A DNA stretch of 64,000 nucleotides, from assembly GCA_008704415.1 (NCBI GenBank), contig VXIS01000069.1:62001-126000 (forward strand), read 5' to 3'. This document shows, one piece after another, positions 25,682 to 62,027 of this stretch. Source of the DNA: Sphaerosporella brunnea (lineage: Eukaryota; Ascomycota; Pezizomycetes; Pezizales; Pyronemataceae). The notes beneath the pieces are model-generated. The model worked only from the letters and a program-made list of their open reading frames with translations, was not told where the DNA came from and did not search any database. Every line of letters begins with the position of its first letter. The stretch's first letter is position 1. Position numbers and translations under genes: made by a program.

Positions 25682-26892
25682 ATGCCACCACCACAATCAA
25701 CTGGATTCTCAATCGGCCTCGGCGGCACGAGGAAGCCACTCGTCGGTCCTCCGAAATCTAGGAAGCCGCTCTCCGCCTTTGACGCCGCTGACGACGATGA
25801 TGATGACGCCTCGTCAGGGACCGAAGACCGTGGCGGAGTGTTTGCGAGCAAGTCTAAGCAGCAGCCGAAGAAGAAGAACACCAAAGACATCTCTGTCGTC
25901 AATGCACAGCTGGCCACCTTCAATGAGCTTTCAAAGAAAGCTGAGAGGTCGGTAGCTGAGGTTGATCCGTCGATTTATGACTACGATGCCGTGTGGGAGG
26001 ATATGAAGTCCGTGGATCGGAAGAACAAAAAGCTCGACGAAATAGATGCTATGGAAAGGAAGCCGAAGTACATGGAAAGCTTACTCGCTTCCGCCGAGGT
26101 GCGGAAACGCGATCAGCTCAGGGCGAAGGAGAGAATGCTACAGAAGGAGCGCGAGGAGGAGGGGGACGAATTCCAAGACAAGGAGAGCTTCGTCACGAGT
26201 GCATACAAGAAGCAGCAGGAAGAATTGAGGAAGCTCGAGGAAGAGGAACGGTTGCGCGAAGGTAGGGATTTCCGGTTTCTGACCTCAAAGAATCGCTCTG
26301 CTGACAGCATCCAGAAAGCTTGAAAAAGAAGTCACAAGGAATGACTAGCTTTCACAGAACCATGCTCGAAAATATGGAGAGCAAGCATGACCAATTGGTC
26401 GCCGCTGCCGAATCTAGGGGGATAGCCGAAAGGACCTTGGACGGACTGGGCGCTGAAGACGACGACACTGCGGATGCGCAGCAGTTAGCTGCTGAAAAGG
26501 CAAGACAGCTGAAGGAGAGCGGCGCAATGATTGAAACAAACGAAGAGGGTCTAGTAGTGGACAAGACTCAACTATTGTCAGGTGGTTTGAACATCACGGC
26601 TTCTAAAAAGCGACCAGTTGCCGACCGCCCACTCGCCGGCCCCCGAAGCTCCCAGCAAGCATATCACGCTCGTGGAGGTGCAAAACAAGACATGAGAGCA
26701 CGACAGAGTAAAATGCTTGAGGAACAGCTTTCCCAAGCGACAAAGCGCGCGTTAGAAGCGGAGGAACGGTCTAAGGCAGAACAAGAGCGGCAGTCCAAAT
26801 CGCGGAAGACAGAGTCGGATGTTAAATCCGCAAAAGAGAGGTATCTCGCTCGGAAAGCGGCTGCTGCTGCAGCTGCCGGAAAGGAGGGGTAG
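25682..26892 (+). CDS. NSRP1/CCDC55-like nuclear speckle splicing regulator (DUF2040)
   Basis: Exons 25682-26261 and 26315-26892 (53-bp intron) give 385 residues. The conserved DUF2040 block spans about residues 60-190: DPSIYDYDAVWEDMKSVD, then KPKYMESLLASAEVRKRDQL and GDEFQDKESFVTSAYKKQQ. The intron joint gives REE-SLKKKSQGMTSFHRTML. The remainder is charged, with long K/E/R helices, probably coiled-coil, and the C-terminus is Lys/Ala-rich. Human NSRP1 binds splicing factors in nuclear speckles and affects alternative splicing; fungal members are uncharacterised. The start follows an Arg/Pro-free leader and gives the usual Gly-rich N-terminus (STGFSIGLGG). Confidence 0.85.
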
Positions 26893-27390
26893 CTTTTGAG
26901 CCATGTAAATGTACATATTATACGCACCAGAGGGAGATGCTGCGTGTAGATAATTCTTTCGGTTCTGTTGGTAAGACTTTGGACTGGCAAATACTAGGGG
27001 GCAGTACTTGCTAAGAATTACATGCCTTGTGAAATTTGCAATGCCATATAAAAACGCACAAGCACGAGCCACAGTACAGCAGCCCGCTAACTGCTAACCA
27101 AACACTCATACCAATCCACTTGATCACTTTGAAACCGCCAATATCAATGAGGTAGTGTGCGCCGGAAACTGCGAGTCCGCTTGAGTCGTGGCATTGTATC
27201 ACCTGTGAGGCTGTGACCCGAAATCCCTAACGATTGCCAACATCTGGTGGAGTTCATACGTCTTTGCTGCCCAGGGTGAGTGCCTCGGGGGCTTTATTTC
27301 AACGCCACATGGGTAGGCATGCTAACCTCAGCTGCTTGCACAATTGCTGAATGTTGCCTTCTAGATCTCAGCCCTCATAATTGCTGCAGC

Positions 27391-27552
27391 TATCCCTCGC
27401 AGTGTCGAAAGTGCCCAATACGCCTACGTTACACCAGAGAGTTCTATAATGAACGCTCCATTGGCCCATCGCCCTCATTATATAATCTCTGTCCACCCAA
27501 TGTCAACTCACTTGGTGTAACGTATTGGGCACTTTCGACACTGCGAGGGATA
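27391..27552. repeat. Inverted repeat / hairpin 1
   Basis: The left arm 27391-27422 is a perfect 32-nt reverse complement of 27521-27552. After a 6-nt insertion (CCTACG) in the left arm, a further 9-10 nt pair (27429-27437 with 27511-27520, about one mismatch). The loop is about 73 nt and A/T-richer. It lies 80 bp before hairpin 2. No target duplication or transposase was found. It could be a foldback element, a transcribed hairpin RNA, or a scar of template switching. Confidence 0.9.
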
Positions 27553-27632
27553 GGTGTCGGAGGGCGCATGCGAATGACTGGGTAAGGGATTTTCACAAGC
27601 AGTTTGATGGCCAAGACATTCAGCCCTACTCT

Positions 27633-27846
27633 ACTATCGCATGGCCCCCAGCTGCGTTTTCTCCCCAGCTGCGCGCTGAGATGTACGCTGGCTGGCTCAG
27701 AAATACGCGGGTAAGCTTTGGCAGGGACCTCGCGTAGCAACCACCACTCAGAAACGTTGCCCGTTGCCATGCGTATTTCTGAGCTAGCCAGCGTACATCT
27801 CAGCGCGCAGCTGGGGAAAAAACGCAGCTGGGGGCCATGCGATAGT
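27633..27846. repeat. Inverted repeat / hairpin 2
   Basis: Two 76-nt arms, 27633-27708 and 27771-27846, are reverse complements at 74 of 76 positions, around a 62-nt loop. One mismatch would be a G-U wobble in RNA. The arms contain CAGCTG repeats (CCCAGCTGCG) and CGCGC. If transcribed, either strand would form a stem longer than 70 bp, a potential Dicer substrate. It ends 136 bp before the STE14 start codon, so it lies in that gene's promoter or 5' leader. Confidence 0.92.
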
Positions 27847-27982
27847 AACTCTGTGGTGTAACTAGCTCTTAGTATTGTTCCTAGACCCTCACAAAAGCCA
27901 TGACCTCGCTGTGCTCTCCTGGATCGGATTGAACCCCCTCGTTTTCTCCCCATTTTGCGGCCGCGCTTCCCATCGAAACCTG

Positions 27983-28894
27983 ATGTCCGCTCCCGCCTCT
28001 CCCGCCTCCTCCGAAATCTCAGATTACGGTGATTCAGCACACCCTACGTTTGCGCGCGGGCAGAATCCGACCAGCTTCCCAGCCTACCTGTACCCATCCG
28101 GAGCCTTCGCGCTCGATGGCGTCGCTTCACGAGCGGGAGGATTAGGGTTTGTGTGTGCATTGGGATTGAATGCGGCGTGGACATTTCGCAGCTCGTATCC
28201 GCAGCTGCCGCTTTTCGTAGCGGTGTTGGCGTTCTTCCATTTCATGGAGTTCTGGATCACGGCTCGGTACAACACGCGGCGCGCAAAGACCGATGCTTTC
28301 ATCCTTACCACCAACGGGGCCGCGTACAACATCGCGCATGTGAGCGCGATGCTCGAGGCCGTGGTCGAGTACTACTTCTGCCCCGAGCTTAAACGTCATG
28401 GCTGGGTTACGGCCACGGGCGTGATCATGGTCGTGTCGGGACAGCTGGCACGCACGTACGCGATGAAACATGCCGGCAGCAACTTTAGCCACTATGTAGC
28501 AACACGGCGCGAAGCTCGGCATCGGCTCGTGACCACCGGAATCTATGCGTGCGATGACCCCCACCTTGTTGGCTTTTTCTTGTTTTGTTAATGGCTGGCA
28601 ACCACAGATATCTGCGACACCCATCGTACTTCGGATACTACTGGTGGGCGATCGGGACGCAGCTCATGCTAGGCAATCCTGTCTGCACTGTTGCATTTGC
28701 GGGTTTCCTCTGGATGTTTTTCAGCACGCGTATCAAGCGTAGGTTTTCCCATTTCCAGCGCGCTCCTCCCCGGTGATATTTGGGACTGCATTGACAATGG
28801 CGTTGTAGACGAGGAACGATATCTTTCAGCATTTTTTGCAGAGTATAAACAGTACAAAGCGCGGTCGTGGGTTGGTATCCCATTCATTGAGTAG
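27983..28894 (+). CDS. STE14: Protein-S-isoprenylcysteine O-methyltransferase
   Basis: Exons 27983-28548, 28608-28738 and 28809-28894 encode 260 residues; introns are 59 and 70 bp. The protein is a polytopic ER membrane enzyme (about five or six segments) that methylates the C-terminal prenylcysteine of CaaX proteins such as Ras, Rho and mating pheromone, using S-adenosylmethionine. Visible marks are HFMEFWITARYN, HRLVTTGIYA joined to YLRHPSYFGYYWWAIGTQ across intron 1, and the closing EERYLSAFFAEY plus VGIPFIE. The RHPxY and E-E pairs are the cofactor and substrate motifs of the ICMT family. Length fits (about 240-290). Confidence 0.93.
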
Positions 28895-59554: not shown

Positions 59555-62027
59555 CTAACTGCTGTCTACCCTCTCTTTTGCTTCATCGACAACCTGTGTT
59601 CCGTCAGTGGATGCAGCGGCATTTGGATTTGGGCCAGTACTCACCCGATTCCAGTCTGTTCGCAGGATGATAACCACCTCGACAACTGCAATGACGAACA
59701 ATGCCACGGCCACACCGCTCCACAGCCCCAGTAGCTCCCAGTTCAGTACAAACCCTGCAAAAAGCGACAAAGGGAGTGCGAGAACATAATAAGCGATGAG
59801 GTTGATGTAGCTTCCGAGATGCTGACGGCCTATTCATCGCGCTGTCAGCCGGAATACAGAAATGGCAGGAAGTTATGGAATATACCTTGACCCCTCAGCA
59901 ATCCTGCGGTGCATGCTCCGATAGCATCGAACAGCTGGAATACAGCACCGAGCGGTATTGTCTTCATAAACAATGCAATAACCTCTGGATCATCCGAAAA
60001 CAATCGAACCACCTGATGGCGTGTGGCCATAACCAACACACAGTTAAAGAACCCCACACCCGCCGCTAACATAAGCCCCAGCTGGGCGGTGGTTTTGGCC
60101 GAGTCGCTCAATGTTGCTCCGAGAAGGTTTGCAACTCTCGTGGACACTGCGACGGACAGCGCAAATGGAAGTTGGAAGGTTAAAGATGCTGTGGTTGAGA
60201 GCACCGATTGTGCGGCTACATGCGCAGTGCTCCAGTACGAGGCCATCAATGTTAGAATTTCGAACGCCAGCCACTCGGCCTCTAGCATGATGAGGCCCGG
60301 GACTGCGAGCTTGATCATCGGAGACCAATTGTAGAGGGCCTTCCGAGAGAATCCGCCCCAGCACTCGGATCCTTTCACAAACCGCACATACAGGGCCAAC
60401 AGCAGGACCATGAGCCAGTTGGTGATAACAACTGCGATCGGTGCTCCGATATAACCGAATCGCTGCAGACGAAGAACCGTCAGCTCCACGAGCAGGACAG
60501 CCAATTGGAATGGCCACGGACCTTAACGAGCATGTAATTCAGGATGGCATTCGAAGGGGCACTGATCAGTAGAACATAGGTCGAGGCCATGAATAATCCT
60601 GCATATTGAGTCAGAATCGAGCGCACATATCGGGTATAGGTGTAGAACAGCGACATTAGCGGTCGTAGGCTACAGCCTGTACACCACCCGGTGTTCTCTC
60701 ATATCGCATAAACTCAGAAACAAGATATTCGACGGCGCGAATAGAACAGTAAAAAACTGTGTGAGGTGTGGATGAAATGTAATACCAGATTCGCGGATTT
60801 GTGAAAGTGGTGTACTAGTACAGGGTCCACGGCACCCGAACGTCCTCTCCGGGAAATAGTGGTGAATTTCGCTCGGCTCCCGGTATGCATTTACCCATAC
60901 CTCACACAATTTTCTACTGTTCTATTCGCGCCGTCGAGTCTCTTGTTTCTGCGTTCATGTATAGAGGAGGCACTCAATAGAACAGCATACTCGCTCGCAC
61001 TCACACATCTCCACCCACAGCACAACTGAAAACGTGGGGGTATACCTTGAGCTTGCACAAATCGCTTACCGGCCTCGAACATGGCGTATCCAGGCACTCC
61101 CAGGGCCAATACCCTCAAATACAAGCTCGCAAAGGCCACCAGTTCTGGTTCGGGAACCAGGGCATTCAAAATAGGCTCCGAGAACTCCCAGAGCAGCACT
61201 ACCGGAACGGAAACCACCATGAGGAAGCAGATCATTCGCTGCAGGTGCAGGCCGACTAGTGTCTTATTTCCGGCTCCATATGCTTGGGAACATAACGTAT
61301 CCAAAGCTGTGGTGAGCCCTGTGCCTTTCGTGAGACAGTGTCTTCAATTTCACCACGTGGCAGACTAACCTTGATATATGGCATATCCCGTGATGGTGGC
61401 GGTCATACTCCCCAGTGAGACACCTGCGAGCTCGTCCTTGCCTAACCGTCCCGCCGCAAATATGGAGGCAATGGTTAAGCTGTACTGCAACGCAAAAGTT
61501 ACATACAACTGTGGTGCTGATTTTGCCACCACCTTTGCCTCCCTCCAATACGTAGTATGTATGATGCCTGCGTCAACCGCATCTTCCCATATTGCCTCCG
61601 TTGAAGCCCGGAGTAGACTCGTACTTTCGTCAACCCTCGCTGGCGGCACCAGAGGAGCAATCGAACTGGACTCGCTAGGTCGTCTTATGCGCGGCACCGT
61701 TCCGTAATCACGGACACCAGCGGCATCCTTCAAGAGCTCTCGTTCCTGCTCCAGCATAGTTCCCCGTTCCATCTCCGTCAGAGCCTTAACGGATGTAGGC
61801 AGCGGGGAAGCGGGAACAAAAGTGGGCCTCGATTGGCCGAAGGTAAAAGATGGCCGCCTATATGACCCCACCAATGAAACATCTGCACTGGATGCCCGGG
61901 AGAGTAAAGTCTCCTCACACTCGTCATCTGAGTCAATTGCGGAGTCGTTTGCATCTGAATTCATATGGACACCAGGTGCTAAGTGCAGGTGAGACCTTGA
62001 TCCTTTTGCTAACGGTGATGGAGCCAT
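59555..62027 (-). CDS. MATE-family multidrug/toxin efflux transporter
   Basis: Five exons, complement(59555-59829, 59886-60462, 60522-60598, 61046-61306, 61370-62027), give 615 residues. An acidic, disordered cytosolic N-terminus of about 160 residues precedes twelve membrane helices. Marks are the MATE start DELAGVSLGSMTATITGYAI-YQ, then ALDTLCSQAYGAGNK (a conserved loop), FEAGKRFVQAQG-LFMAST and YIGAPIAVVITNW in the second half. It resembles yeast Erc1/Ydr338c. MATE proteins export organic cations using H+ or Na+ gradients; substrate unknown. Intron 3 (60599-61045, 447 bp) is far longer than any other and contains an inverted repeat listed separately. Confidence 0.9.
60705..60960. repeat. 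Inverted repeat inside MATE intron 3
   Basis: The left arm (about 60705-60787) and right arm (about 60884-60960) are reverse complements over about 75 nt, roughly 85% identical by eye. The best core is the 24-nt GAATAGAACAGTA-AAACTGTGTGAGG region with CGACGGCGCG. The loop is about 95 nt. Together they account for most of the extra length of the 447-bp intron, so this may be an inserted foldback element. Confidence 0.75.

What the first reader, a model, noticed from the sequence alone, without database searches (positions are those of the whole stretch)
27391..27846. Two adjacent large hairpins upstream of STE14
Two strong inverted repeats sit 80 bp apart: one with a 32-nt perfect core plus a further 9-10 nt, the other with 76-nt arms at 74/76 identity. 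They are unrelated in sequence, have no ORF and no clear target duplication, and the second ends 136 bp before the STE14 start. If transcribed they would give Dicer-sized stems, or they could be a foldback repeat or replication-error scar. Two such structures side by side are unlikely by chance.
Basis: seen in the sequence. Interest (0 to 1): 0.75.

Follow-up and report, generated by a model that had tools for sequence, protein, structure and literature searches.

The report
Two neighbouring miniature transposon copies
The two big hairpins in front of a fungal gene are copies of two different kinds of small, gene-less jumping DNA, each found in dozens of places in the genome, so the pair is ordinary, although one kind shows a striking habit of changing both of its arms together.

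Summary
The two inverted repeats are real and far beyond chance. [quoted passage not shown] Family A (27632-27847) was found at 40 places (40 of 77 candidates scored). Of 28 copies whose ends I read, 27 are bounded by TA, and single-TA empty sites exist in other repeats. Family B (27391-27552) was found at 40 places, many partial (40 of 63 candidates scored), with TA-edged ends but no empty site found (0 of 11). The finding's own refuter, arms that are dispersed transposon ends, is met. No small-RNA data could be consulted, so the Dicer idea stays untested. The transposase of either family was not found. Most interesting by-product: in family A the two arms change together. 20 of 77 arm pairs carry complementary changes on both sides; branch-wise co-changes number 7, 13 or 23 depending on the tree, against 0 in every shifted control, and two are private to single copies. 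This suggests arm-to-arm copying.

The parts
27391..27552 (.). Family B MITE copy, 162 bp, TATCCCTCGC...GCGAGGGATA
   Evidence: related termini at dispersed places; outer 31 nt of the arms identical
27391..27422 (+). Family B left terminal inverted repeat (32 nt, within a 33-nt perfect core)
27521..27552 (-). Family B right terminal inverted repeat
27632..27847 (.). Family A MITE copy with its flanking TA (216 bp; 212 bp between the two TA)
   Evidence: closest copies 99% (C177) and 98% (C257)
27632..27708 (+). Family A left arm (77 nt)
27771..27847 (-). Family A right arm (77 nt)
27632..27633 (.). TA, left copy of the target duplication of A
   Evidence: read as target DNA by analogy with other copies whose empty sites are seen
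27846..27847 (.). TA, right copy of the target duplication of A
   Evidence: same reasoning
27646..27656 (+). 11-bp motif CCCCAGCTGCG, copy 1 (left arm, outer)
27663..27673 (+). 11-bp motif, copy 2 (left arm, inner)
27806..27816 (-). 11-bp motif, copy 3 (right arm, inner)
27823..27833 (-). 11-bp motif, copy 4 (right arm, outer)
27709..27770 (.). Central spacer of A (62 nt)
27983..28591 (+). Open frame holding the first exon of the STE14-type isoprenylcysteine methyltransferase gene downstream of A (host gene, not part of the elements; the frame runs on into what looks like an intron)
   Evidence: Pfam ICMT

Best explanation
Two copies of two unrelated non-autonomous DNA transposon (MITE) families landed 79 bp apart in the intergenic region upstream of STE14. 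Shown: dispersed copies with the same ends, long terminal inverted repeats, TA at the borders, and for family A single-TA empty sites. Inferred: a Tc1/mariner-type (IS630-Tc1-mariner group) transposase encoded elsewhere binds the terminal repeats and moves the elements by cut and paste into TA. Because the terminal repeats make up most of so short an element (154 of 216 bp in A), the DNA reads as a big hairpin; the hairpin is a consequence of the ends, not a gene of its own.
For: Family A: 40 distinct places, window included (40 of 77 first-look candidates scored), each matching over at least 136 of 216 bases; its 17-bp terminus, up to 1 mismatch, occurs 60 + 63 times on the two strands, reversed-pattern control 0 + 0. 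27 of 28 copies inspected are bounded by TA (in the miss, L062, the outer T reads C). The 25-nt flanks printed differ between copies apart from the pair L055/L056 and some copies that lie in other repeats. Empty sites: the joined flanks of L044 match L062 69 of 69 and L007 68 of 69 across the junction with one TA, but only 7 nt lie beyond the TA because the host repeat ends there; L007 against L024 (77 of 86) and L003 against the minus strand of L007 (78 of 90) also cross the junction with a single TA and no gap at it, their gaps (5 and 2 nt) lying elsewhere. Family B: 40 distinct places, window included, many partial, two on C85 perhaps ends of one element (40 of 63 candidates scored); its 21-bp terminus, up to 2 mismatches, occurs 77 + 84 times, control 0 + 0; full copies run TATCCC..GGGATA or close to it. 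Longer relatives with the same ends exist: A-type about 0.4-0.5 kb (L069, L070, L072), B-type 0.9-1.0 kb (L065-L068). The STE14 region itself is found once in the genome.
Against: No transposase-bearing element with A or B ends was found: none of 9 fetched DDE_1 loci carries A or B ends as its own (L072 has a separate A-type element beside its transposon), nor does the DDE_3 transposon of L081; but I read only 9 of 83 DDE_1 and 1 of 86 DDE_3 matches. For B, 0 of 11 joined-flank queries found an empty site among the loci in hand, so its TA could be the end of the repeat rather than target DNA. Other strains or species were not compared at this locus; the genome tool states that it holds no relatives.
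Confidence: 0.95

Rival explanations
1. The hairpins are transcribed and cut by Dicer into small RNAs that silence STE14 or the transposon families; they are milRNA or siRNA precursors.
For: Both would form very stable RNA stems; two Dicer_dimer matches exist in the genome; siRNA from TIR or MITE hairpins is proposed for a fungus in PMC4188875 (passages read).
Against: No expression or small-RNA data were available; no Rfam match at gathering scores; the sequences are those of dispersed mobile elements, so small RNAs, if any, would come from many loci and not be specific to this one.
Confidence: 0.15
2. The two elements are kept side by side because together they regulate STE14 (promoter or 5' UTR exaptation).
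For: Family A ends 135 nt before the ATG.
Against: No sign of a joint unit: the families are unrelated and otherwise dispersed; the A copy is 98-99% identical to two copies elsewhere, so it shows no special divergence; uniform placement gives 0.02-0.06 such close neighbours by chance, low but not prohibitive.
Confidence: 0.05
3. Replication-error or template-switch scars made on the spot, not transposon copies.
For: Near-perfect arms can be made in one step by template switching (PMC8794818, abstract and opening passage read).
Against: Dozens of copies with shared ends and TA borders elsewhere.
Confidence: 0.01

Closest known systems
Fungal Tc1/mariner-related MITEs (Sclerotinia Mariner MITEs, PMC4188875, passages read; Fusarium mimp, recalled)
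   Same: No coding capacity, terminal inverted repeats, TA target, mobilisable in trans.
   Different: Much shorter than the 481-813 nt Sclerotinia MITEs; arms of A cover 154 of 216 bp; partner transposase not identified; sequences not compared with a library of named families.
Foldback-type elements (recalled)
   Same: Very long inverted repeats with a short spacer and repeated motifs inside the arms (two 11-bp copies per arm in A).
   Different: Far smaller; only two motif copies per arm; TA target.
Template-switch maintained hairpins (Monttinen and Loytynoja 2022, PMC8794818, abstract and opening passage read)
   Same: Complementary double changes that keep a stem paired.
   Different: Described for RNA genes; here the stem is a non-coding transposon.
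DINE-1 3' hairpin (PMC2374699, passages read)
   Same: A stem inside a non-autonomous element whose sequence differs among species while pairing is kept.
   Different: Stem of 7-11 nt compared between species; here 77-nt arms compared among copies of one genome.

Membership tests
MITE | Short non-coding element with terminal inverted repeats | tested here: met
   162 and 216 bp; the mechanical ORFs that cross them (27280-27585 + and 27444-28040 -) run beyond the elements and were not tested for homology
MITE | Many dispersed copies with the same ends and unrelated flanks | tested here: met
MITE | Target site duplication supported by an empty site | tested here: met
   family A only: (L044, L007, L003 copies, paralogous sites in other repeats); family B 0 of 11
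MITE | Shares ends with an autonomous element | tested here: inconclusive
   longer relatives found, none seen to hold a transposase; only 9 of 83 DDE_1 and 1 of 86 DDE_3 places read
Tc1/mariner superfamily | TA target | tested here: met
   A: 27 of 28 plus empty sites; for B only inferred from termini
Tc1/mariner superfamily | Mobilised by a DDE/D transposase of that superfamily | not testable with these tools
   needs the partner element or a transposition assay
Dicer-processed hairpin (milRNA) | 20-24 nt reads from both arms | not testable with these tools
   no small-RNA data held
Rfam RNA family | Covariance model match at gathering score | tested here: not met
   0 matches in the 64-kb window

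The most novel reading that the evidence does not exclude
Family A's arms evolve in concert: within an active MITE lineage one arm is repeatedly rewritten from the other (template switching or conversion inside the hairpin). All four 11-bp motifs, which may be transposase-binding sites (inference), then shift together from CCCCAATGTCG to CCCCAGCTGCG or CACCTATGTCG, giving new subfamilies with matched ends. Evidence: 20 of 77 pairs with complementary two-sided change, 122 such cells against 44.5 +/- 5.1 in shuffles; 7, 13 or 23 co-changes on tree branches depending on the tree, against 0 for each of ten partner shifts; symmetric changes private to single copies (L057 at pair 24, L086 at pair 18); four identical motifs in 13 of 31 copies; L043 with one arm of each type.
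Probability: 0.5. Interest if true: 0.45.

Novelty: new member of a known kind. Interest (0 to 1): 0.27.

Why it matters
It shows that the pair is ordinary transposon landscape rather than a special RNA locus, and describes two TA-edged MITE families of a Pezizales genome with clear ends. The symmetric arm changes of family A offer a natural record, with a copy that has one arm of each type, for asking how long inverted repeats stay paired and how MITE ends can switch to new sequence on both sides.

Tried and rejected
Rejected: a unique hairpin locus (many copies); a joint two-hairpin unit (the families are otherwise dispersed; looking by eye through the printed rows, of which 12 and 13 print only part of their 123 and 161 termini, I saw one other A-B neighbour within 1 kb, on C56); a described RNA family. 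Led nowhere: the search for the autonomous partner among DDE_1 and DDE_3 places; the 0.9-1.3 kb B-type elements, whose open frames in L065, L068 and L091 have no Pfam match (in one search the L068 stretch was named in wrong coordinates and so tested an unintended frame, repeated correctly); C70 and C85. The 16-nt similarity between the inside of B (27428-27443) and the right flank of A (27847-27862) and the 13-nt repeat 27655/27940 look like chance and were not pursued. My first alignment A1 mixed orientations, because the palindromic arms align either way; it was replaced by A2, and nothing is drawn from A1. The comparison of arms across B copies is weak: a text pattern paired ends in 17 of 51 loci, and some pairings are wrong (for instance L017, L020), so I draw nothing from its averages (6.4 mismatches of 31 within, 8.2 between).

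Against the arm-copying reading: other changes on the branches (95, 62, 64) outnumber co-changes (23, 7, 13), and the number of co-changes depends on the tree; L043 and L081 could be recombinants rather than intermediates; relatedness of the rows inflates the shuffle control; and selection for matched ends in a source element is not excluded.

Papers: PMC6908789, part 1 of 2; PMC8794818, abstract and opening passage; PMC4188875 and PMC2374699, passages; all others only as search listings with beginnings of abstracts. Literature searches; among the listed titles and abstract beginnings I saw none about coupled MITE arms or about MITEs of Pezizomycetes, which does not show that such work is not in print.

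Full report
What is there. The window lies on contig C607 of a 50.6-Mb assembly. A search with the STE14 first exon returns a 100% identical protein named from Sphaerosporella brunnea on a contig of 167,910 bases, the length of C607. The published draft is 51.6 Mb in 872 contigs, sequenced with PacBio from mycelium of a single spore (PMC6908789); the held assembly has 640 contigs, so it is the same species, but I did not establish that it is the same version. Between an NSRP1-like gene (open frame 25682-26323 with the Pfam domain, the next frame to 26892 probably the same gene) and STE14 (ATG 27983) sit two inverted repeats, confirmed: B, 27391-27552, and A, 27632-27847.

Not chance, not unique. 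The window holds 66 inverted 14-mer pairs within 300 bp, 36 in A, 20 in B and 10 in a third repeat near 60.7 kb, against none in each of 20 simulated windows. Searching the genome gives 40 places for A (40 scored of 77 candidates) and 40 for B, many partial (40 scored of 63). Terminus patterns occur 60 + 63 times (up to 1 mismatch) and 77 + 84 times (up to 2 mismatches), with zero reversed-pattern controls. The tool states that such counts are lower bounds.

Ends and target. In 28 A copies inspected, 27 are bounded by TA on both sides, followed inward by CTATCGC. L044 lies inside another repeat; its joined flanks match uninterrupted copies of that repeat 69 of 69 (L062) and 68 of 69 (L007) with a single TA, though only 7 nt of the match lie beyond the TA, because the host repeat ends there. 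Two more joined-flank queries, L007 against L024 and L003 against the minus strand of L007, cross the junction with a single TA and no gap at it, at 90% and 87% identity. L048 also gave spanning matches, in tandem repeats, on which I do not rely. So A inserts at TA and duplicates it. B copies begin TATCCC and end GGGATA or close to it, which fits the same target, but no empty site was found (0 of 11).

Relatives and partner. Longer A-type elements (about 0.4-0.5 kb; L069, L070, L072) and B-type elements (0.9-1.0 kb; L065-L068) share the ends. What looks by eye like an LTR retrotransposon (gag- and integrase-like open frames; no family search made) interrupts one A copy (L082), and a DDE_3 transposon abuts another (L081). 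The genome has 83 DDE_1 and 86 DDE_3 matches; of the 9 and 1 that I read, none carries A or B ends. The transposase is therefore inferred, not shown.

Arms that change together. In an alignment of 31 A copies (25 distinct rows; L056, L058, L061 and the longer elements left out, and about ten further scored places that I could not fetch) 98.2% of arm cells pair, 20 of 77 pairs have a complementary change on both sides, and 122 cells carry one against 44.5 +/- 5.1 in 500 shuffles, 0 of 500 as high. The shuffle control ignores kinship, so I counted changes on trees: 23, 7 and 13 complementary co-changes on the same branch for trees from the spacer, from all columns and from left arm plus spacer, against 0 for each of ten shifts of the partner, with 95, 62 and 64 other changes. 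Two cases are private to a single copy (L057 pair 24, L086 pair 18). Each arm holds two copies of an 11-bp motif; in 13 of 31 copies all four are identical, as CCCCAATGTCG, CCCCAGCTGCG (as in the window) or CACCTATGTCG. L043 has motifs of the first kind (one as CCCCAGTGTCG) in one arm and of the second kind in the other. Arm-to-arm copying, by template switching as described for RNA hairpins (PMC8794818) or by conversion, explains this most simply; selection for matched ends in the source element, or recombination between subfamilies, are alternatives.

Side by side. With about 61 and 80 copies, uniform placement gives 0.02-0.06 expected A-B neighbours within 100 bp. A preference for intergenic DNA, which I did not measure, would raise this. 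A second pair lies about 0.8 kb apart on C56 (L088). I see no need for a joint function.

Verdict. Ordinary: two MITE copies of two families, one close to its nearest relatives (98-99%) and one more diverged (89% to its nearest). Dicer processing remains possible and untested. The arm co-evolution is the part worth a second look.

Noticed in passing
window 60707-60959: A third inverted repeat in the same window (73-nt arms, 88%), about 250 bp, with ends CGCATAAACTCAGAAACAAGA; it matches a stretch of L011 (84% over 260 nt), and its end resembles the repeat in which some family A copies lie (26 nt in L003, 92%), so probably a third TIR element family.
   Followed up: partly
L043 (C348), L081 (C33): Family A copies whose two arms belong to different subfamilies: possible half-converted or recombinant copies.
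   Followed up: partly
L082 (C21:71250-76200): An insertion of about 4.6 kb with gag- and integrase-like open frames (judged by eye) that interrupts a family A copy.
   Followed up: no
L065, L066, L068, L091: B-type elements of about 0.9-1.3 kb carry a shared open-frame start (M[SP]PVLR.RK and CECG.PI) without a Pfam match, perhaps a remnant of the autonomous element's gene.
   Followed up: partly
G000 C43, C45, C47, C101, C152, C280, C434, C494, C622: Pairs of the terminus TATCCCCCGCAGTGTCAATAG about 0.9-1.1 kb apart, with the same terminus letters at all of them: a B-related subfamily that may have spread recently.
   Followed up: partly
L055 (C419) and L056 (C105): The same A copy with the same 25-nt flanks on two contigs: a duplicated segment or redundant assembly.
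   Followed up: no
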